Shown: positions 36,468 to 56,147 of the stretch, piece after piece
Layout: every line of letters starts with the position of its first letter
Position numbering within the stretch: position 1 is the stretch's first letter
Origin: Streptomyces sp. PCS3-D2
Lineage (GTDB): Bacteria; Actinomycetota; Actinomycetes; Streptomycetales; Streptomycetaceae
Assembly: GCF_000612545.2 (NCBI RefSeq)
Contig: NZ_CP097800.1
Location: 7,184,001-7,248,000, forward strand
DNA: 64,000 nt
Direction of reading: 5' to 3'
The notes under the pieces: model-generated
What the model saw: only the letters and a program-made list of their open reading frames with translations
The model's database searches: none
Told to the model about the DNA's origin: nothing
Program-made: the position numbers and the translations under genes

Positions 36468-38570
<2,103 letters not shown>

Positions 38571-44054: not shown

Positions 44055-46865
44055 TCAGGACGATCGCGTGTGCCCGTTTCCCCCGCCGGTGCGGTCGTCG
44101 TGGATCCCCTCTTGGGGAGGAGACGGCAGAAGCGGTCGTGGCGGCAGCGCCTGGGCGTGACGCAGGTACCGCTGGGCCGCGTCCTCGATCACCCGGGGCA
44201 GGAGCTGGCTGAACTCCTCCATGCTCGACACCCCCCGGGCGGCGGCGCGGAGGACCTGGTTCATCGTGCTTGGCAGGGTCTCCTCCAGGCGGGCGGTGAG
44301 TCCTGTCTCTCGGGCGGAGCTTTGCGGGTCGCTTCGGTTCCACGGGACGACCACGCCGACCCACGGCCGGTGTCCGGCGTCGAAGGCGGCGAGCCGGGCC
44401 CGGCGCCCCTCGTCGGCCAGCGCCCAGCGGTCGAGCAGCAGCACTTCGGGGCTGGACGGGGCCTGTTCGCCGTCGTGGTGCGGCACCTGCTCGTCGAAGG
44501 AGGAGACGGTGACCCGGTAGTCGAGGGAGCGCGCCAGTTCCTCGGCGACCCAGACCAGAGGCCGCGCGGACACCGGGTGGTAGGGGTTCCAGTCCAGTGG
44601 ACTTTCCCCGTAGTACTCGGCGGCGCGGCCCTCGGGCAGTTGGTGACGCGTGGGGGCGACGACGGTCAGGCGAATCCGGCGCTGGCGGGACCCTGCTACC
44701 CCGAAGGCACTGGGGACCGTCCGGTAGTCGAGCACACGGCTGGGGTCGAGGGAGGTGGACTCGGCCACGTGCACGATGCGCTTGGCGAGCTCATAGATGC
44801 TCCGTTCGTACTCCTCGGCGAAGCGAAGCTTGATCAGCCCGTAGAGCCCTTCGGTGGCATAACGTTCGCCGAACGAGCGGTGGGTGAACTGCAACGCAGC
44901 TGCGGGAGAGGGAAGTTGCTCCGAAGGTACGGGGACCCAGAGCGCGGGCACGATCGCCCCGGCCGGCGCGTTGCTGCGCGCCTGGTGATGGATCATGCGT
45001 TGGGCGAACGCATGCCACTCCCTCCCGCACGTCTCGCTGGCGAAGTACCGTGGGGAGAACAGCGGGACGAACACCCGGCATGCGGCGAGCGCTGCGCCCA
45101 GCCGCTCGGACCAGCCCTCCCCGGTGCGTATCTCCCGGTCCATGAAGCCCACTGGCGCCCCGGCCGGCAGATCGGTCAGGGCCATCACATGGCCGCACAG
45201 ATCGCGGAACAACCGCTCGACCCACATGTCGGGGTCTGGACCGCCGGTGCCGAACCTCGGTGTGTGCGCGTAGCTGAGGAAGAAGTACGGCCGGTTGCGC
45301 GAGACCGCGGCGGAGCGAGCCGGGTCGCCCCCGGCCCGTACGGTCAGGCTCGGCCGTGGCGGGTCCGGAGGCGTGACGGGACCCGCGGGTGCCGGGGAAA
45401 CCGGCCCCATGACGGTGTCGGCGCCGGGGAGCCAGTCGGAATCCCCGGGGTGCTCCTCGGTGTGGCGGGCCAGCAGCTGACGCAGTGTGCGGACGTCGCG
45501 TACCCCGAGGCGCCGCTGCGCCACCTCGCGCACACCGGGTCGGTAACTCAGCTCGACGCCGCCCCGGACGGCGTCCGCCGCCTCCTCCGCCGAAAAGAGC
45601 CCGGCGACGAGGATCTCGGCGAGGTCCGCCACCGTGGCCTCGGGCACCATCCGCTCCTGGACGAACCGCACGAGCGGAAGACTCAGCCGGTCGAAGGGGG
45701 TGCACAGCACGGCAAGCCGGGCGGCGGCGGGCGACGCGAGGTGGAAGAAGGCGTCGGCGACGGCGTGCTCCCGGCCCGGACGGTCCACTTCCCGTACAGC
45801 CGGCGGGACGGGTTCGTAGGACGCGGGAAGGAACAGCGCGTCGCACCCCTCGGGGGCTGCGCGCATCAGAAGCCGGGCCCATCGGCCGAGGGAATGCGGC
45901 GAGAACGCCTGCACGGGCAGGGGCAGCCAGTCCGGCTGTCCGGGCACTGCGGCTGCCGACGGGACCGGTGACAGCGGAGGGTGGAAGCGAAGTGCGGCAT
46001 TCCACGGGCCGGGGGTCCCCGGGGAGCCGACCCGGCCGGCCGGGAGGTCCACGCCGACATGGCGCCATATCTTGGGCGGTAGCGGGTTGACCAGTGCCAC
46101 GCTGCCCTTCAGGGCCCAGATGTACGCCGAGTGCCACAAGGTGCCGTTGCGCCATGCCAGCGACGTGCAGTCGGAGGCAATGAGGAGCAGGCTGCGCGCA
46201 GTGGGGAGCCCAAGCGACCCGGGCGGATGCCGGTTGCCACGACCGTCCGCGATCTCGGGCCGCTCACCGTCGGCGTACAACTCGCGGACCCGCACGGCAC
46301 GGAAAGCTCCGAGGGTCCGCAGCCGCCGCCGGAACTCGTCCAGCACCTCCTGCCAGACCGTCATCGAGGGCGAGCGGTCCACGAGCAGGGTGAGGTCGTA
46401 CCAGCGTTCCGGTGCGGGGGCGAAGGCAGGAATGAGCTCACCGGTGCGGGCGTAGTCGCGTACGGTCGCCGCGATGTCGAGGGCCGGTCGGCGACCCTGT
46501 CGCCAGGGACGCTTGAACGGGCGCAGTGCACGGCCGAGTTCGAGGGAGCTCGGCAGGGCGGGCGACCTCGGCACAGCCGTGGATTCGGTGTGTGGCGCGG
46601 GGCCGGTCGGACGTCCCCGTCGCGCGAGTCGCAGCCGCTCGGGGGGCGGGCTGCCGACCGGGGCATCGGCGGGCCGGGCCGGGGACGGCGGCCCACCGGG
46701 GCGGCGCGGCGGTACCGAGGCCGGGGGCCGTTGCGCGGCCAACCAGATGACGTCGGCCAGCGAGACCGCGTCCATGGTGCTGTCGGCCCGCCGGAGCAGG
46801 CCGAGCGTGCGGGCAAGTGCGTCCCCGTGCGCTGAATCCCACCGGTCTGCGGGAGTTTCAGGCAC
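44055..46865 (-). CDS. SAV_2336-like / vWA-like / TIR (FxsC-like) fusion protein
   Basis: This 936-aa protein is probably the sensor-effector of the conflict operon. Residues about 20-48 (LRRADSTMDAVSLADVIWLA) match the start of the SAV_2336 N-terminal family. Residues about 155-260 look like a vWA domain with MIDAS-type D163-R-S165-P-S167. A helical region follows, then a Pro-rich linker (487-508). From about 525 a TIR domain begins with YFFLSYAH, and FVPLFSPRYFASETCGREW contains Glu616 at the place of the catalytic Glu of NADase TIRs. The region from about 705 to 935, with a second alpha/beta part (PWVGVVVPWN), is typical of FxsC-type proteins. The start is GTG 46865, overlapping the moxR stop by eight bases, with AAGGA upstream. 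It could cleave NAD+ when triggered; enzymatic activity is inferred. Confidence 0.82.
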   Translation of the reverse strand: MPETPADRWDSAHGDALARTLGLLRRADSTMDAVSLADVIWLAAQRPPASVPPRRPGGPPSPARPADAPVGSPPPERLRLARRGRPTGPAPHTESTAVPRSPALPSSLELGRALRPFKRPWRQGRRPALDIAATVRDYARTGELIPAFAPAPERWYDLTLLVDRSPSMTVWQEVLDEFRRRLRTLGAFRAVRVRELYADGERPEIADGRGNRHPPGSLGLPTARSLLLIASDCTSLAWRNGTLWHSAYIWALKGSVALVNPLPPKIWRHVGVDLPAGRVGSPGTPGPWNAALRFHPPLSPVPSAAAVPGQPDWLPLPVQAFSPHSLGRWARLLMRAAPEGCDALFLPASYEPVPPAVREVDRPGREHAVADAFFHLASPAAARLAVLCTPFDRLSLPLVRFVQERMVPEATVADLAEILVAGLFSAEEAADAVRGGVELSYRPGVREVAQRRLGVRDVRTLRQLLARHTEEHPGDSDWLPGADTVMGPVSPAPAGPVTPPDPPRPSLTVRAGGDPARSAAVSRNRPYFFLSYAHTPRFGTGGPDPDMWVERLFRDLCGHVMALTDLPAGAPVGFMDREIRTGEGWSERLGAALAACRVFVPLFSPRYFASETCGREWHAFAQRMIHHQARSNAPAGAIVPALWVPVPSEQLPSPAAALQFTHRSFGERYATEGLYGLIKLRFAEEYERSIYELAKRIVHVAESTSLDPSRVLDYRTVPSAFGVAGSRQRRIRLTVVAPTRHQLPEGRAAEYYGESPLDWNPYHPVSARPLVWVAEELARSLDYRVTVSSFDEQVPHHDGEQAPSSPEVLLLDRWALADEGRRARLAAFDAGHRPWVGVVVPWNRSDPQSSARETGLTARLEETLPSTMNQVLRAAARGVSSMEEFSQLLPRVIEDAAQRYLRHAQALPPRPLLPSPPQEGIHDDRTGGGNGHTRSS

Positions 46866-47775
46866 GGGACAGGTCCTTCAGCACCAGCTCGAACAGTCCG
46901 CGCGGGAGTTCCGTGGAGCCGTTCATCAGGTGGAGGGCGTTCAGCAACTGGTCGAGGGCGAGGGTTTCGCCGGAGGACACCCGGTTGACGAAGTCGGTGA
47001 CCAGCTCCGCGATGGGCCCGCCGTCTGCCACGTCGATGCCCAGGTGTTGGCGCACCACGTCCTGGATGAGCTCCTCCGAGGGGAGGGGCATGGTGAACCG
47101 GACGCAGCGGCGCAGGAACGGCGGCGGCAGTTCCTGTTCCCCGTTGCTGGTCATCACGATGAACGGGAACTCACTGCACTGCACAAGGCCGTGCTCCACC
47201 TGAGCCTTCTCCTCGCTGTCCCAGATCCGTACCTGCGCGCAGTCCTGCCCCTCCCGGAGCAGTTCAGGGATCCGGAACTCCCCGCGCTCCAGCACTTCCA
47301 GCAGGTCGCCAGGCAGGTCCAGATCGGCCTTGTCGATCTCGTCGACGAGCAGGGCCCGGGGCCCCGGTGGCAGCAGCGCGGAGCCCAGCGGGCCGAGCGC
47401 CAGGAAAGCGGCGACTTCGTCTTGCTGCCCGAGGCGCTGCGCGTGGATACGCCCAAGGGCGTCGTAGCGGTAGAGGGCGTCGGAGAGGGTGCTGCGGGAG
47501 GTGATGTGCCAGCGCAGCACCGGCCCCAGGTCGAGTTCGTGCGCCACCTGTTCGATCACGGTCGACTTGCCGGTGCCCGGCGGACCGGTGATCAGCAGGG
47601 GACGGCGCAGGATCAGCGCTGCGTTGACGGCTTGCTTCAGTTCCGGTGTCGGACAGAACACCTCGGCGGCCGGAAGCCTGGGAAACCGTCGCCACGGCGG
47701 TGGCTCGGGCAGTGCGGCGCCGGGCCTGGCGACACCGTCACCCCGGTAGTACGCGGTCTGTGGCCCGCTGGTCAT
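46858..47775 (-). CDS. MoxR-type AAA+ ATPase
   Basis: This 305-aa ATPase has Walker A GPPGTGKS (64-71), Walker B ALLVDEIDKA, sensor FIVMTSNGEQELPPPFLRRC with the Arg finger, and a MoxR-like C-terminal helical part. MoxR ATPases act with vWA proteins to remodel or load partner proteins. Here the vWA-like partner is the very next gene. ATG 47775 has GGAGGGGGAG upstream and overlaps the preceding stop by four bases; a longer frame runs back into the previous gene. It is the NTP-dependent switch of the operon. Confidence 0.92.
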   Translation of the reverse strand: MTSGPQTAYYRGDGVARPGAALPEPPPWRRFPRLPAAEVFCPTPELKQAVNAALILRRPLLITGPPGTGKSTVIEQVAHELDLGPVLRWHITSRSTLSDALYRYDALGRIHAQRLGQQDEVAAFLALGPLGSALLPPGPRALLVDEIDKADLDLPGDLLEVLERGEFRIPELLREGQDCAQVRIWDSEEKAQVEHGLVQCSEFPFIVMTSNGEQELPPPFLRRCVRFTMPLPSEELIQDVVRQHLGIDVADGGPIAELVTDFVNRVSSGETLALDQLLNALHLMNGSTELPRGLFELVLKDLSRA

Positions 47776-49871
47776 TCGCTCCCCCTCCACGTCGTCCGCC
47801 TCTCTGCCGTCTGCCCGGCGGTGAGCCGGCTGCAGAACCGCAGCCACTCGGGGTCGTCCCAGACGGCCCGCCAACCGCCGATGCCGTCGTCCGGTTCGTC
47901 CTGCCACCTGCACCGGTAGGCCAGCATCAGCACTTCGGGCATGCGCGGCCAATGGCGGTCGAGCCAGTCGGCCCGCACCCGGCCGCCGTCCGGACCGTGC
48001 GGCCACAGCAGCACCGGGGTGTAGGTGAGGAGAAGGTCCATCAGCTGTTCGTTTGCTCCAGGATGATGGGTCAGAGCGATTCCCTTCCCGAACCGTCCGT
48101 CCCGCAGGTGCTGACTGAGGACGGTCAGCGCCGGTGTGTCCGGCCCCGTGATCCAGTCGAGCGGGATGTCCGACTCAGGCGCGCCGATCCGGTTCCAACA
48201 ATTCCTGAGCGCGCTCTGTGCCAGACGCAGAGCCCGGGTCGGGCTGAGTCGCTGGCTCCAGTGCACGACGACGTCGTAGGACACGCCGAGCCGCAGGATC
48301 TCCCCCGCCTCCTCAGGACGCCACTTCAGCAGCAGGCCCGTGGGCACCGCGATATCGAGTCGACGCAGCGGGTACTCGAGGGACTCGGCGAGGTCCTCCG
48401 CCCAGAGCACGGCGTCCTCGAGTGCCGTCTCGACGCCGTGGCGGTCGGCCGCCGGGCACGGGAAGGTCCAGTGGTTGTGGGTGTGCCCGTTGTCCAGCAG
48501 CCAGGCCTCGAGGGACTCGGGCCAGTCTCCCGCCAGCGAGGCATGGAGGCTCACGACCAGACTGAGGCGTCGATCGCCCTGCTTGGCGCGGGCGAGGTCC
48601 ACCGCGTCGTTCAACGCCACCACTGCGTCGATCTGCTCAGCCCAGCGGCGCAGCTCGGGTGCCGTGTCGTCCATGCCCGCCTCGTGGGCGAGCAGCAGGA
48701 CGAGGGTCGTCAGTCCGGGCCGGCAGTCGGGGTCGGTGACCGGGTGGTCGAACACCATCTGGTCGACGACGTCGGTGAGGGTAGGCCGCGTCAGGAGTCT
48801 GGTGTCGGCCGGCAGACGTCCCTCCGCTGAGAGCAGCGTGTGCACGGCGCGACGGAGCATGAGCGTGGTGAGGCCCGCTCCCATCCAGGAGCCGATGAAG
48901 TCCACGGTGCGCAGGGCGATCAGTTGACCGTCGACCGCCCTCAGAGCTCGGTCACGCGCGGGCGACGCCGGCAGTGCGGTCAGCCGTCGGCGCGCCTCAA
49001 GCACGGTCGGGATGCCGAAGTCCCCGGCTTCCGGGTCCACTGCTCCGGTGAGGGACAGCCCGGTCACGGCACCGAGCGCCTCGGCGAGTTCGTCGACGGC
49101 GAGGCGTCCGGAGCGCCGGACGCCCGGTACCGCTCGGTGGCCGGTGTTGCGGGCCAGCCAGAGTTCTCCGTACGAGAAGTGGTCGCCGTCGTGCACGTTC
49201 GACAGCACGCTCTGGCCCACGATGAGCTCGCGCAGCCGTGTGGCGGCTCCCGCAACGGTCAGCAAGGGACCCTGATGGTCGGAGCCGTCGCGGATCAGGG
49301 CGGCCAGGGCTTTGGACAGGCGCAGGTCGTAGGCCGGCTCGTGCGGCAGCGCGCCCATCAGCACCGCCAGCCGGGCCCGGTCCTTGCTGATTTCGGTGGG
49401 ATGGACGGCCGCGGCACCGGCGTGGCAGGTGTCGACGACCGCGATGACGCCTTGGATACCGGGGTGGTCGACGGCGACGAGCAGTTCGGCGCCGATGTCG
49501 ACCGCCCGGTCTCGCACTCCCTCCCGCGAGTCGGCGCCCATCAGGTACAGCGTGCTGCCCAGCCGGAACCCGTGCCCGAGCAGCGCGAGGACGAGCACCG
49601 CGCCCCGTTCGCCCGCGTACTGGACGGCCGCCCGCAGCATCGCCGTGATCTCGGCGCTGTCCAGGTCGTCCCCGGTGATCAGAGAGGCGGCTCCGCCCGG
49701 GAACGCGGACCGTCCGGGCAGGGCGGGTACGCACCCGCCGAGCGACGGCTCCATCAGCACGTCGTGGAGCGCGCCCGCAGCGCTTCGCAGGTCTTTCAAG
49801 CGTTCCTTGGAAGCGCATTGCGGGGCGACGACAAGCAGGTGACGCCGCTGCCCGGCGCTGGTCGTGGTCAT
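47772..49871 (-). CDS. Caspase-like peptidase fused to VMAP-type domains
   Basis: This is a 699-aa protein. Residues about 8-225 are a caspase-fold (C14-like) peptidase: LVLALLGHGF with catalytic His100 and VIAVVDTCHAGAA with catalytic Cys149. From about 240 on the protein is mainly helical (RLTALPASPARDRALRAVD, TLTDVVDQMVFDHPV). From about 420 to the end it matches what is called the vWA-MoxR-associated protein C-terminal domain, with RRLSLVVSLHA, EYPLRRLDIAVPTGLL and ITGPDTPAL. In such systems the N-terminal module is a protease of trypsin or caspase type. ATG 49871 overlaps the hydrolase stop by four bases. The likely action is proteolysis of the other operon products or of host targets. 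Confidence 0.83.
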   Translation of the reverse strand: MTTTSAGQRRHLLVVAPQCASKERLKDLRSAAGALHDVLMEPSLGGCVPALPGRSAFPGGAASLITGDDLDSAEITAMLRAAVQYAGERGAVLVLALLGHGFRLGSTLYLMGADSREGVRDRAVDIGAELLVAVDHPGIQGVIAVVDTCHAGAAAVHPTEISKDRARLAVLMGALPHEPAYDLRLSKALAALIRDGSDHQGPLLTVAGAATRLRELIVGQSVLSNVHDGDHFSYGELWLARNTGHRAVPGVRRSGRLAVDELAEALGAVTGLSLTGAVDPEAGDFGIPTVLEARRRLTALPASPARDRALRAVDGQLIALRTVDFIGSWMGAGLTTLMLRRAVHTLLSAEGRLPADTRLLTRPTLTDVVDQMVFDHPVTDPDCRPGLTTLVLLLAHEAGMDDTAPELRRWAEQIDAVVALNDAVDLARAKQGDRRLSLVVSLHASLAGDWPESLEAWLLDNGHTHNHWTFPCPAADRHGVETALEDAVLWAEDLAESLEYPLRRLDIAVPTGLLLKWRPEEAGEILRLGVSYDVVVHWSQRLSPTRALRLAQSALRNCWNRIGAPESDIPLDWITGPDTPALTVLSQHLRDGRFGKGIALTHHPGANEQLMDLLLTYTPVLLWPHGPDGGRVRADWLDRHWPRMPEVLMLAYRCRWQDEPDDGIGGWRAVWDDPEWLRFCSRLTAGQTAERRTTWRGSE

Positions 49872-50842
49872 GCTCCAGGCGCGGATCCGCTACCGAGGGC
49901 CTCGGCGACGAGCCCGGCGACGCCCGGCTGGGCCAGGTACTTCACTGCCGGGTGCACCCAGGCCCCGTCCGAGTCGACGCGGCTGCTGACCGGGCGCACC
50001 CCGCGGGCGTTGGGACGAAAGCCGGCCTCCAGCCGCGGGCGCACCGCGATGACGTCGTCCCGGTCCCAGAAGTTGAGCCACCTCCCTACCACCGTGGGTG
50101 TCGCGGGCGGTTGTGGTACGAGCCGGGGATGGACCACGGTCCGCATGCACAAAGGGGAGCCGAGCGTGACGATCAGCGGAACCTCCCCATGGTGTTCGTG
50201 CAGACTCTCCAGGGCCACGACAGTCCCGAGCGAGTGGGCGACGACCACGGTCGCCGGTTCCGCGAGGGCCTCGGCGATCCGTCCGCGTATCCGGACGTCG
50301 AGGGTGTCTCCGTGTTCGTCGGGCTCCTGCCGCGCCAGGTAGCGGGCGACCTGGGACAGTTCACGGACCATGGCCCGGGGGGCCAGCATGCGGCCGGCGG
50401 TCCGCCACGGGGGCAGATCCATCAAGGTGGTGATCACGTTGAGCGCCCTGCGGGCGAGGTCGCCGATGCCCTGCGGCTGTCCCTCCGGGCGGGCCTGCGC
50501 CCGGGCGTGCGCCAGCATCCGGCCTTCCACACCGCCTGCGGGGAAGTCGTACTCCTCGCCCAGCGCGTCGACCATTTCGATGAGCAGGTCCGCGAGGATC
50601 TCCTCCGCCTGCCCGGTGATCTCTGGGGATCCGTCCCCCTGAGCTTGTGGAGCCTGGAAAAGGTCTCCGTAGTACGCGAACCGTGCTGCCACCGGGCCGC
50701 CGTCCGCCGTGAGCGCCTCCGCGAGGGCCGAGTGCCCCGCGAGGCGCATTCCGTTGGCGAGAGCCCCGGTCCACTGGGCGAGTTCCCGTGCCGGATCCCG
50801 CGGCCCGCCGATTCCGTGGACGAACACCATCCGCGGGCTCAT
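49868..50842 (-). CDS. Alpha/beta hydrolase (lipase/esterase-like), first gene of the conflict operon
   Basis: This 324-aa protein has the oxyanion-type opening MVFVHGIGG and the nucleophile elbow VAHSLGTVVALE with Ser204. The acid and base lie in the C-terminal part (WDRDDVIAVRP, HPAVKYLAQ). It resembles the lipase-like proteins found beside signalling NTPases. A helical insertion of about 100 residues lies between strand 1 and the elbow. ATG 50842 follows GGGGAGG; the frame runs nine codons further up. It has no signal peptide, so it acts in the cytoplasm, possibly on membrane lipids. Four-base overlap with the caspase-like gene makes it part of the operon. Confidence 0.85.
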   Translation of the reverse strand: MSPRMVFVHGIGGPRDPARELAQWTGALANGMRLAGHSALAEALTADGGPVAARFAYYGDLFQAPQAQGDGSPEITGQAEEILADLLIEMVDALGEEYDFPAGGVEGRMLAHARAQARPEGQPQGIGDLARRALNVITTLMDLPPWRTAGRMLAPRAMVRELSQVARYLARQEPDEHGDTLDVRIRGRIAEALAEPATVVVAHSLGTVVALESLHEHHGEVPLIVTLGSPLCMRTVVHPRLVPQPPATPTVVGRWLNFWDRDDVIAVRPRLEAGFRPNARGVRPVSSRVDSDGAWVHPAVKYLAQPGVAGLVAEALGSGSAPGA

Positions 50843-51353: not shown

Positions 51354-52958
51354 ATGATTACCTTTCGTGATGTCGAGCTGCGTGCGGGCGCCCGCCTGCT
51401 GCTCTCCGACCTCTCCTTCACCGTTTCCCCCGGCGACCGCATCGGCCTGGTCGGCCGCAACGGAGCGGGCAAGACCACCCTCATGAACGTCCTTGCCGGG
51501 CGCACCCGGCCGGCTGCGGGCACCGTCACGCACACCGGTCCGGTGGGCTTCCTCGCCCAGGACTCCCGTGCCACGGACCAGCAGGTCACCGTCACCGACC
51601 GGATCCTGTCCGCCCGCGGCCTGGACCGGGCGCGGCGCCAGCTGCGAACGGCCGCGACGGCGATGGCCGACGCCGCCTCGCCCGACGTGCTGGACCGGGC
51701 GATGAACGCGTACGCCCGCGCCGACGCCGCCTTCCAGGCCGGCGGCGGATATGCCGCCGAGGCCGAGGCCGCCCGGGTGGCCGCCGGCCTGGGGCTGCCC
51801 GGCAGGGTCCTGCACGATCCGCTGGGCTCCCTGTCCGGAGGCCAGCGCCGCCGAGTGGACCTCGCGCGTATCCTCTTCGCCGGCCCGCGCGGAGTCCTGC
51901 TGCTGGACGAGCCGACCAACCACCTGGACGCCGACTCGGTCGGCTGGCTGCGCACCTTCCTCCAGGCCCATACCGGCGGCCTGGTCGTGATCAGTCACGA
52001 CACCTCGCTGTTGGCCGCCGTGACCAATCGGGTCTTCCATCTGGACGCCACCCGCACCACGATCGACATCCACAACACCGGCTGGGACACCTACCTCGCC
52101 CAAAGGGAGGCGGACGAACGGCGTCGCGCCCGCGAACGGGCGAGTATCGAACGCAAGGCCGCCGCCCTGCACGCGCAGGCCGACAGGATGAAGGCCCGCT
52201 CGGCAACCGCCGCCATGGCCAAGAGCATGGCCCGGCGCGCCGACCGGATGCTGACAGAGCTCGAACCGGCACGGCGTACGGAAAGGATCGCCAAGATCGC
52301 CCTGCCCGAGCCGGCGCCGTGCGGGCGGACGCCGCTGGGTGCGGTCAGCCTGACCAAGTCCTACGGCGACCACCAGGTACTCAAGGGCGTCGACCTCGCC
52401 GTGGACCGGGGCAGCCGCCTGGTGGTACTCGGCCTCAACGGCGCGGGCAAGACCACCCTGCTGCGTCTGCTGGCCGGCACCGAACGGCCGGATGCCGGCC
52501 GGGTGGTGCACGGTCACGGACTGCGCCTGGGCTACTTCGCGCAGGAGCACGACACCCTCGATGTGGATCTGACGGTCCGACAGAACCTGTCCGCAGCCGC
52601 CCCGCACCTGGGTGACGGCGCGGCGCGGCACGTGCTGGGCGCGTTCCTGTTCTCCGGGGATGATGCCGACAAGTCGGCCGGGGTGCTCTCCGGCGGCGAG
52701 AAGACCCGCCTGGCACTGGCCGGGCTGGTGCACTCCGGGGCCAACGTGCTGCTGCTGGACGAGCCGACCAACAACCTCGATCCCGCCTCCCGGGGCGAAG
52801 TCCTGGCCGCGGTCGGCGGTTACCCGGGCGCGATCGTGATGGTCACGCACGACGAGGGTGCCATCGACGCCCTGCGCCCCGACCGGGTCCTGCTGCTGCC
52901 GGACGCGGACGAGGACCTGTGGAGCGAGGACTACCGCGGCCTGGTCACGCTCGCCTGA
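51354..52958 (+). CDS. ABC-F family ATPase
   Basis: This 534-aa protein has two ATP-binding cassettes and no membrane part. Cassette 1 has GRNGAGKTT (Lys40), LSGGQRRR and [11 protein letters not shown]. Cassette 2 has [18 protein letters not shown] and [11 protein letters not shown]. The linker between them is basic and helical ([20 protein letters not shown] then [20 protein letters not shown]), the segment that enters the ribosome in antibiotic-resistance ABC-F proteins. It may protect ribosomes from an antibiotic or act as a housekeeping translation factor. The position behind a leader ORF favours inducible ribosome protection. A terminator follows. Confidence 0.93.
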
Positions 52959-53893: not shown

Positions 53894-55978
53894 TCACCGG
53901 GCCGACAGGCCTCCGGCGACCGAGGCGGGTACGGGCGCCAGACCGGCCGGCCGGGTGGTGAAGACGCCCCGGCCCTGGGTCCGGCCGCGGAGCCGGGACG
54001 CGTACCCGAACAGCTCGGCCAGCGGCACCGTCGCCGTGATCACCGCGGTGCCGCCCGCGGACGCCTGTCCCGAGACCCGGCCGCGGCGGGCCGCGAGGTC
54101 GCCCAGAACGCCCCCGACGCCGTCGTCGGGGACGGTCACCGTGACCTCCACGACCGGCTCCAACAGCTCCATCGTGCTGAGCCGCAGCGCTTCGCGCAGC
54201 CCGAACCGGCCCGCCGCCCGGAACGCCATCTCCGAGGAGTCCTTGGAATGTGTCGCCCCGTCGGTGAGGGTGACGCGCAGCCCCGTCACCGGGTGACCGC
54301 CCAGCGGGCCCCCGGCCAGGGCCTCGCGGCAGCCGGCCTCCACGGCGCGCGCGTACTCCTGCGGCACCCGGCCGCCGACGACCGTCGAGCGGAACGCGAA
54401 GACCGGCTCCTCCAGCGGCTCGACGTCCAGCACGACGTGCGCGAACTGGCCCGCGCCACCGTCCTGTTTGACGTGCCGGTGGACCAGGCCGGTCACCCCG
54501 CGCACGACGGTCTCCCGGTAGGAGACCTGCGGCCGGCCCGCCACGACCTCCACCCCGTGACCGCCGCGGATCTTCTCCGCGGCCACCTCCAGGTGCAGTT
54601 CGCCCAGCCCCGACAGCACGGTCTGCCCGGTCTCCGGGTCGGAGCGCACGACCAGCGAGGGATCCTCCTCCGCGAGCCGTGCAAGCGCCGTCGCCAGCCG
54701 ACCGGTGTCGGCGTTGCGGCGCGCCTCCACGGCCACCGACACCACCGGCTCGGCCACCGTGGGCGGTTCGAGCAGCAGGGGCGCCCCCGGCGCGCACAGG
54801 GTGGTGCCCGCCCGGGCGGATTTGAGCCCGATCACGGCGACGATGTCGCCGGCCACCGCTTCCTCCCTGTCCTCGTGCCGGTCGGCCTGGACCCGCAGGA
54901 TCCGGCCCACCCGCTCCGTACGGCCCGTGGCCGCGTCCAGTACCGTCGCGCCCTTGCGCAGCGTGCCCGCGTAGACCCGCAGGTAGGTGAGCCGCCCCGG
55001 CGCCACGGTCGTCACCTTGAAGGCGAGGGCCGCGAACGGCTCCGCCGGGTCGGGCGCGCGCTCCTGCTCCGCGCCGCCGGCCGTACCGCGTACCGGCGGC
55101 ATGTCGGAGGGCGCCGGCAGGTACGCCACCACCGCGTCGAGCAGCGCTTCGATCCCGCGGTCGCGGTACGCCGAGCCGCACAGCACCACGACACCGTCCC
55201 CGCGCAGCGTCAGCTCCCGCAGGGCCCGGGCCAGGGTCGAGTCGCTCAGCGCCGATGCGGCGCAGAACTCCTCGAAGGCCCCGGTGTGGAGCTCCGCGAC
55301 CGTCTCCTCCAGCAGCCTGCGCCGCTGCCCGGCCTCCTCCCGCAGGGCTTCGGGGACCGCCCCCGGCGCGATGCCGGCGGAGCCGGACTGCGGGCACAGC
55401 GCACGCATCGTCACCAGGTCGACGACGCCGGCGAAGGCGCCCTCGCGGCCGATGGGCAGCTGTACCACCAGGGGTACGACGCCCAGGCGGCGGCGGATCG
55501 ACGCCACGGCGGTGTCGAGGTCGGCGCCCGCCCGGTCCAGCTTGTTGACGAACGCGATGCGCGGCACACCGTGCCGGTCCGCCTGCCGCCACACGGCTTC
55601 GCTCTGCGGTTCGACCCCGGCGACGGCGTCGAACACGGCGACGGCACCGTCGAGGACCCGCAGCGAGCGTTCCACCTCGTCGGAGAAGTCGACGTGTCCG
55701 GGCGTGTCGATCAGATTGATGTGGTGCCCGGCCCAGGTACAGCTCACGGCGGCGGCGAAGATGGTGATGCCGCGGTCGCGTTCCTGCGGGTCGTAGTCGG
55801 TGACGGTCGTCCCGTGGTGTACCTCGCCCCGCTTGTGGACGGCGCCGGCCGCGAACAGGATCCGTTCGGTGAGCGTGGTCTTGCCGGCGTCGACGTGGGC
55901 GAGGATGCCCAGGTTGCGCAGGGTGCCGAGGGAAGAGGCAGGGGAAGTGGAGGTGCGGGTGCGTCCGTTGGCGCGCAT
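53894..55978 (-). CDS. fusA2: Elongation factor G paralogue (EF-G2-like)
   Basis: This 694-aa translational GTPase has G1 AHVDAGKTT (27-35), G2 RGITI, G3 DTPGHVDF and G4 NKLD. It is followed by domains II-V with [10 protein letters not shown] and the domain IV loop region ([20 protein letters not shown]). Length equals normal EF-G. The sequence is closer to EF-G than to tetracycline-type ribosome protection proteins. Streptomycetes usually have the main fusA in the ribosomal operon; this copy is elsewhere, so it is a second EF-G of unknown role, perhaps in stress or recycling. ATG 55978 follows GAAAGG. A small ORF with a strong ribosome site lies 170 bases upstream on the same strand. Confidence 0.92.
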
Positions 55979-56147
55979 GGCCCGGGGCCTTTCGAATGAA
56001 GTGAGGAGATGAAGAGGGCGGCGCGATGTCCCTGACGACGGCCCCGTCACCCCGACCGGCATCGGCCGTCGACGGCCGCCACCCGTGGCCGGAGCAGGGC
56101 CGGGCGGGCAGGGCGGTGGCGTACGGAAGGCGGGGAGCGGGACGGAC

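What the first reader, a model, noticed from the sequence alone, without database searches (positions are those of the whole stretch)
44055..50842. Four-gene overlapping conflict operon: alpha/beta hydrolase, caspase-VMAP, MoxR ATPase, vWA-TIR
Four minus-strand genes overlap by 4, 4 and 8 bases, so they are one translational unit. Their domains (caspase-like peptidase with His100/Cys149, VMAP-type C-terminal region, MoxR AAA+, vWA with MIDAS, TIR with a Glu at the NADase position, and an alpha/beta hydrolase with a GxSxG-type elbow) fit the vWA-MoxR-VMAP ternary conflict systems known from comparative genomics. Three different candidate killing activities (protease, NADase, lipase) in one operon would allow layered abortive response to phage or other stress. 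I do not know of an experimental description of this exact set.
Basis: partly seen in the sequence, partly recalled or inferred. Interest (0 to 1): 0.85.

Follow-up and report, generated by a model that had tools for sequence, protein, structure and literature searches.

The report
Caspase-VMAP ternary system with FxsC effector
Four overlapping genes encode a predicted bacterial cell-death switch of an already described kind, whose output part, a TIR-type domain, appears to have been borrowed several times from a separate peptide-making system.

Summary
In detail: four minus-strand genes overlap by 4, 4 and 8 bases. They are an alpha/beta hydrolase, a caspase-VMAP protein, a MoxR ATPase, and a vWA protein ending in a TIR domain. 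Catalytic residues are conserved. The caspase fold is supported by an AlphaFold2 model. VMAP-C is too diverged for Pfam but is found profile to profile. Gene order is conserved in 54 of 64 related loci.

The class is not new. Kaur et al. 2020 (PMC7159879) describe VMAP ternary systems, the caspase-hydrolase pairing, and TIR as a vWA effector.

What I did not find in print: the TIR module is FxsC, a marker of FxsABC cyclophane-peptide clusters. FxsC-vWA fusions arose repeatedly. Over 11 genomes the fused copy resembles the genome's own separate FxsC more than expected (p 5e-5), but the window's copy does not (rank 21 of 38). Verdict: a new member of a known kind, with a testable link between two systems.

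The parts
49868..50842 (-). alpha/beta hydrolase-like protein, 324 aa; Ser204, His297 and Asp260 or Asp263 as likely triad
   Evidence: weak PGAP1/Abhydrolase_1; Ser204 and His297 in 58 of 58 rows, Asp260 and Asp263 in at least 95%
47772..49871 (-). caspase-VMAP protein, 699 aa
   Evidence: model mean pLDDT 86.3
49275..49847 (-). caspase-like domain, residues 9-199, His100/Cys149
   Evidence: Foldseek: legumain 7.8e-6, MALT1 caspase domain 3.1e-5; His 56 of 57, Cys 57 of 58 rows with a residue there; NF047832 2.4e-6, below cut-off
48600..49271 (-). VMAP-M2 middle region, residues 201-424
   Evidence: PF19965 8.3e-49
47850..48455 (-). diverged VMAP-C domain, residues 473-674
   Evidence: hhalign against 21 VMAP-C sequences: prob. 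96.8, E 2.1e-10; no Pfam hit
46858..47775 (-). MoxR-type AAA+ ATPase, 305 aa (Walker A GPPGTGKS, Walker B LLVDEID)
   Evidence: AAA_5 1.6e-9; G64, G67, G69, K70, S71, D145 in 60 of 60 rows, E146 in 59
44055..46865 (-). vWA-FxsC fusion protein, 936 aa, GTG start
45450..46733 (-). SAV_2336 N-terminal region with vWA domain, residues 45-472; MIDAS Asp163, Asp232
   Evidence: NF041121 6.4e-93; Asp163 59 of 60, Asp232 60 of 60; best PDB folds are vWA domains and NorQD, E 0.007-0.011, weak
44760..45290 (-). FxsC N-terminal (TIR) domain, residues 526-702, Glu616
   Evidence: NF040588 4.3e-68, TIR_2 2e-9; Glu in 45 of 45 rows
44133..44672 (-). FxsC C-terminal domain, residues 732-911
   Evidence: TIGR04276 8.8e-61

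Best explanation
This is a caspase-type vWA-MoxR-VMAP ternary conflict system. Shown by sequence: a constant four-gene core, intact active-site residues, and a swappable vWA C-terminus that here is the FxsC module (TIR plus FxsC C-terminal domain). Inferred: the VMAP middle region senses an intruder or damage; VMAP-C and the MoxR ring remodel the vWA protein; the caspase, with its hydrolase partner, becomes active and frees or unleashes the FxsC TIR through the disordered linker; the TIR then consumes NAD+ or makes a nucleotide signal, stopping or killing the cell. FxsC was exchanged several times with the separate FxsC of FxsABC cyclophane-peptide clusters, most simply by capture into the vWA gene, often from the host's own cluster. 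That suggests a cellular partner that the FxsABC system also uses.
For: Four genes in order in 54 of 64 loci and all four present in 15 of 15 full-length homologous loci among 20 taken from one genus. Catalytic residues conserved. Caspase fold. VMAP-C by profile. The SAV_2336 region is also in the vWA protein of another VMAP-C, MoxR, vWA system of the same genome, whose VMAP has weak serine-protease matches. Output part varies while the core stays (18 changes for 18 labels on a quick VMAP tree). FxsC presence needs 4 changes (gains or losses) on that tree; on the FxsC tree fused/separate needs 12 changes, 6 forced by supported branches. Eight FxsC modules from one VMAP clade, plus that of L049, are not one clade (p-AU 5e-9). 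Fused and separate FxsC of one genome resemble each other (mean best rank 5.5 of 38, 19.2 when shuffled, p 5e-5). A trypsin-type ternary system, L165, carries an FxsC 93.7% identical to the genome's own. The linker before the TIR is low-confidence and not conserved.
Against: No experiment on a caspase-VMAP system turned up in my searches (open-licence papers only). NADase activity of FxsC has not been shown; the TIR part of the model is poor (block means 30-60). No conserved cleavage motif in 16 linkers. The window's own FxsC is not closest to its genome's copy (67.8%, rank 21 of 38), and own is the top hit in only 4 of 11 genomes. 11 of 12 fused-FxsC genomes also have a separate FxsC, against 124 of 381 others, but among caspase-VMAP genomes with other outputs it was 4 of 8, so co-occurrence alone is weak. 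Trees do not fix the direction of exchange. Defence role rests on class analogy.
Confidence: 0.55

Rival explanations
1. Reverse direction, as Dore et al. 2024 propose for VMAP systems with DGR-diversified vWA proteins: the vWA C-terminal part is the sensor and the caspase (with the hydrolase) is the killer. Here the FxsC part would detect an event in the FxsABC pathway, and the caspase would execute.
For: Constant caspase and hydrolase with varied vWA C-termini suit many sensors feeding one executor as well as one switch feeding many effectors. Passages of PMC10907252 state this alternative. Captured host proteins as bait (integrated decoys) would explain copies resembling the genome's own FxsC.
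Confidence: 0.25
2. Layered three-toxin system: protease, NADase and lipase each kill.
For: All three active sites look intact and conserved.
Against: Hydrolase and working caspase are missing together in L084 and L100 while VMAP, MoxR and vWA stay, and the vWA C-terminus is what is exchanged; this fits partner and switch roles. Lipase activity is not indicated by any above-threshold family.
Confidence: 0.1
3. A developmental or physiological signalling switch of mycelial actinobacteria rather than anti-phage defence.
For: Some relatives have SpoIIE phosphatase, GntR-ParA or TPR outputs; I know of no established function of FxsABC.
Against: Sporadic spread: 21 of 150 genomes of the genus, also on 10 Streptomyces plasmid records; varied output parts; several outputs are nucleases or helicases of restriction type.
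Confidence: 0.15

Closest known systems
vWA-MoxR-VMAP (VMAP) ternary conflict systems, Kaur et al. 2020, PMC7159879 (sections 8, 10 and 24 whole, section 35 part 1 of 2, abstract and passages read)
   Same: Order VMAP, MoxR, vWA; tripartite VMAP with N-terminal caspase, middle region and VMAP-C; neighbouring alpha/beta hydrolase; MIDAS vWA; C-terminal variable effector, TIR included
   Different: The main text does not use the word FxsC. It derives vWA TIR domains from AP-ATPase-fused versions; here the TIR comes with the FxsC C-terminal domain and groups with separate FxsC. VMAP-C too diverged for Pfam. Its source-data tables could not be opened, so this very architecture may be listed there
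FxsABC (FxSxx-COOH) cyclophane-peptide clusters, NCBIfam FxsB TIGR04269, FxsC TIGR04276/NF040588
   Same: The C-terminal 400 residues of the vWA protein are FxsC, 67.8% identical to the genome's separate FxsC
   Different: No FxsB in the window; the genome's best FxsB is at C1:6046396 beside the separate FxsC
EACC1-associated caspases, NCBIfam NF047832
   Same: Caspase-like N-terminus matches at 2.4e-6
   Different: 27 bits against a cut-off of 140; followed by VMAP regions instead

Membership tests
VMAP ternary system | VMAP-C domain | tested here: met
   profile-profile prob. 96.8, 199 columns; controls under 1%; Pfam model itself silent
VMAP ternary system | gene order VMAP, MoxR, vWA | tested here: met
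   window; 54 of 64 loci in order, hydrolase included
VMAP ternary system | MoxR AAA+ ATPase with Walker motifs | tested here: met
   the helix-2 insert that defines the MoxR clade was not checked
VMAP ternary system | vWA with MIDAS aspartates | tested here: met
   Asp163 59 of 60, Asp232 60 of 60; SAV_2336_NTERM 6e-93
VMAP ternary system, caspase subtype | caspase VMAP always beside an alpha/beta hydrolase gene | tested here: met
   window and 54 of 64 loci; hydrolase absent where caspase is degenerate or not detectable (L084, L100)
VMAP ternary system | variable effector at the vWA C-terminus | tested here: met
VMAP ternary system | conflict (anti-invader) function | not testable with these tools
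   predicted in PMC7159879
FxsABC cyclophane-peptide system | FxsC domains | tested here: met
   NF040588 4e-68, TIGR04276 9e-61, both over cut-off
FxsABC cyclophane-peptide system | FxsB radical SAM maturase in the locus | tested here: not met
   FxsB matches at C1:6046396, 4418958, 2560607 and a weak one at 5948769; none in the window
NADase TIR | catalytic glutamate | tested here: met
   Glu616 in 45 of 45 FxsC rows; that this is the catalytic position is recalled knowledge of TIR NADases
NADase TIR | NAD+ cleavage | not testable with these tools
   needs an assay
known PADLOC defence systems | match to a system's models | tested here: not met
   no match for three proteins; MoxR only short P-loop matches

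The most novel reading that the evidence does not exclude
Ternary conflict systems repeatedly take in a copy of the host's own FxsC so that the switch is wired into the FxsABC peptide pathway: either the fused TIR acts on the same downstream partner as FxsC, or it is an integrated decoy that guards FxsC. Other FxsABC-cluster parts (FxSxx_TPR-type repeats, AAC(3)-like proteins) appear at the same effector position.
Probability: 0.35. Interest if true: 0.65.

Novelty: new member of a known kind. Interest (0 to 1): 0.42.

Why it matters
It gives a compact, chromosomal, intact example of a class on which I found no experimental paper, with clear point mutants (Cys149, Ser204, Glu616, Asp163) that would separate sensor, switch and effector. 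The repeated exchange of FxsC with the host's own peptide cluster makes a specific prediction: the two systems share a partner, so the function of FxsABC, which I know only as a natural-product-like cluster, may lie in cellular conflict.

Tried and rejected
Caspase without VMAP-C: rejected, because Pfam missed it but profile-profile comparison found it. An FxsABC locus with FxsB near the window operon: rejected. A single FxsC-vWA fusion inherited down: rejected. A conserved protease cleavage site in the linker: looked for by eye in 16 fused proteins, none seen. TIR fold by structure: inconclusive, since the P0001 model is weak there and Foldseek gave no match at E 0.001 or better. Sequence search of P0003 and P0001 against the PDB: no match for P0003, one weak TIR match (E 0.72) for P0001. 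Literature on FxsABC function: nothing found in the listings (20 of 60 listed, 12 of 166, 8 of 22).

Rows dropped before counts: L028 and L029 VMAP from A1 (one search named a stop in L028; L029 is listed with stops); rows whose matched range holds stops (VMAP L049, L061, L066, L099; hydrolase L080; MoxR L099, L107; vWA L076); L101 (partial) and L174 (fragment) from FxsC trees, and L050 and L065 from the later trees, where their genomes are represented by L164 and L167. VMAP tree: nine partial or duplicate rows left out. In one search three fused rows (L164, L165, L167) were wrongly cut; one search repeats it corrected. The match list was cut at about E 1e-47, so weak fusions can be missing; three of the 12 come only (G022, G098, G108). 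G226 looked long but shows no vWA match. In one search the group included L049, which is not on the VMAP tree, and a first FxsC tree had already been seen. L111 has a caspase profile match and no hydrolase but is a caspase-AAA protein without VMAP regions.
Full report
Observation. Four minus-strand ORFs at 49868-50842, 47772-49871, 46858-47775 and 44055-46865 overlap by 4, 4 and 8 bases. The hydrolase start has a GGAGGA and the MoxR start a GGAGG stretch upstream. The window lies at C1:7184001-7248000 of a 7.63 Mb genome.

Domains. P0003 (699 aa) has VMAP-M2 at 8e-49 and a weak EACC1-type caspase match (2.4e-6, below cut-off). An AlphaFold2 model from 39 sequences has mean pLDDT 86.3. Its best PDB matches are legumain (7.8e-6) and the MALT1 caspase domain (3.1e-5, TM-score by target 0.65). 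Pfam VMAP-C does not hit it. A profile of its C-terminus aligns to a profile of 21 Pfam-recognised VMAP-C sequences with probability 96.8 and E 2e-10 over 199 columns, while its middle and caspase regions as controls give under 1%. P0001 (936 aa) is SAV_2336_NTERM (6e-93) followed by FxsC_Nterm (4e-68) and FxsC_Cterm (9e-61), with TIR_2 at 2e-9. SAV_2336_NTERM is also in the third gene of another VMAP-C, MoxR, vWA system of the same genome (L046; its VMAP has weak serine-protease matches); the genome has three such proteins. P0002 is an AAA+ ATPase, of MoxR type by context. P0004 has only weak alpha/beta hydrolase matches.

Active sites. Among relatives (rows with stops dropped): caspase His100 in 56 of 57 and Cys149 in 57 of 58 rows with a residue there; hydrolase Ser204 and His297 in 58 of 58; MoxR G64, G67, G69, K70 and S71 in 60 of 60; vWA Asp163 in 59 of 60 and Asp232 in 60 of 60. 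FxsC Glu616 is present in 45 of 45 rows, 15 fused and 30 separate.

Neighbourhood. P0003 relatives occur in 21 of 150 genomes of the genus, the window's own included. I fetched 20 of the 25 listed places; all 15 with a full-length match have hydrolase, VMAP, MoxR and vWA. A scan of genome contigs (84,980 species) gave 64 loci; 54 have the four genes in order. Some of these are the same genomes as, and L097/L105 are two copies in one genome. Of the other ten, five are cut by contig ends (L060, L082, L085, L089, L109), L050 lacks MoxR, L099 has stops in its matched VMAP and MoxR ranges and no vWA match, L111 is a caspase-AAA protein without VMAP regions and without a hydrolase, and L084 and L100 lack the hydrolase. 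With profiles built from the relatives, L084 matches the caspase only in two pieces with a gap between (the aligned dyad is gone) and L100 gives no caspase match; neither gives a hydrolase match better than E 0.36, while the control locus L064 gives both at 1e-75 or better. The hydrolase thus seems to go with a working caspase; this rests on two loci. Two genomes (L040, L041) have a hydrolase beside a caspase and no VMAP-C, MoxR or vWA match; in L041, the one scanned, the caspase protein carries a partial VMAP-M2 and TPR repeats. Ten Streptomyces plasmid records carry relatives.

FxsC. In the window's genome a separate FxsC (C1:6043105) lies in a cluster with FxsB (radical SAM), an AAC(3)-like gene and an FxSxx_TPR protein; upstream of FxsB an open frame ends in FNSAL, an FxSxx-type end (my reading). 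The window has no FxsB. vWA-FxsC fusions are in frame in 11 of the 64 loci; in L056 the FxsC match lies beyond the vWA frame's stop. FxsC presence needs 4 changes on the VMAP tree. On the FxsC tree of 55 rows, fused and separate rows need 12 changes, 6 forced by supported branches (8 and 4 in the first tree of 45 rows). Fused FxsC of eight members of one VMAP clade plus L049 are rejected as one clade (p-AU 5e-9; long branches present). In 11 genomes with both kinds, the fused FxsC's best own-genome rank among 38 separate copies averages 5.5 against 19.2 when genomes are shuffled (p 5e-5); own is the top hit in 4 of 11; one genome (G108) has three own copies in the pool. The clearest case is L165 (G387), 93.7% identical, in a Trypco1/trypsin-VMAP system. 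The window's own pair is not such a case (67.8%, rank 21 of 38; best 69.6%). Of 393 genomes, 12 have a fusion that I confirmed against the vWA region and 11 of these also have a separate FxsC, against 124 of 381 others (Fisher p 5e-5; my tally, fusions checked; in the 150-genome sample 7 of 8 against 48 of 142, p 0.004). A fairer control, caspase-VMAP genomes with other outputs in the 150-genome sample, is 4 of 8, so this count alone does not show a link.

Literature. Kaur et al. 2020 (PMC7159879; sections 8, 10 and 24 whole, 35 first part, abstract and passages) set out this class, the gene order, the caspase-hydrolase rule, TIR and inactive MinD/ParA-like domains as vWA effectors, and a link of some VMAP systems to FxSxx peptide-processing genes. 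They propose that proteolysis frees the effector. Dore et al. 2024 (PMC10907252; passages) propose the reverse flow and say that experimental tests are still to be done. PMC10910872 (passages) reports vWA-MoxR-VMAP domains near CRISPR loci. My searches gave no listed report of an FxsC-vWA fusion or of an experiment on such a system (open-licence PMC papers only; long lists seen in part).

Mechanism. Shown: the parts, their conservation, one constant core, one exchangeable output, and repeated exchange of FxsC between fused and separate forms. Inferred: sensing by the VMAP, remodelling by MoxR-vWA, caspase-dependent release through a variable disordered linker (no conserved cleavage motif), and TIR enzyme activity. 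The three-toxin reading is less likely because two of the three candidate enzymes sit in the constant part and are missing together where one is lost.

Verdict. A well-conserved new member of the VMAP ternary class. The part worth following is the recurrent borrowing of FxsC.

Noticed in passing
L165:6079-12671 (G387): Trypco1 + trypsin-VMAP-C + MoxR + vWA system whose vWA protein ends in an FxsC 93.7% identical to the genome's separate FxsC: a recent capture.
   Followed up: yes
L041:7362-9763 and L040: Two-gene unit: alpha/beta hydrolase plus caspase, without VMAP-C, MoxR or vWA matches; in L041 the caspase protein has partial VMAP-M2 and TPR repeats. Possibly a reduced form.
   Followed up: partly
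L045:4983-13494 (own genome C1 about 6.04 Mb): FxsABC cluster also holds an AAC(3)-like gene; AAC(3)-like domains sit at the vWA effector position in L090 (44% identical), L091 and L110, and FxSxx_TPR-type repeats with FxsC in L038/L039.
   Followed up: partly
G000:C1:2560607-2569281: Another ternary system of the genome (VMAP-C protein with weak serine-protease matches, MoxR, SAV_2336 vWA) with an FxsB-family radical SAM gene a few kb away.
   Followed up: no
L050:9001-13574 (G217): Relative without a MoxR match and without the first part of the vWA region, yet with an open vWA-FxsC frame.
   Followed up: no
L097 and L105: Streptomyces cyaneochromogenes carries the system twice, near both ends of its chromosome.
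   Followed up: no
[not shown]
   Followed up: no
window 36468-38555 (-), 51354-52958 (+), 53894-56062 (-): Flanking genes: an NAD-dependent DNA ligase, an ABC transporter-type ATPase with two ATPase stretches, and an EF-G-like protein.
   Followed up: no
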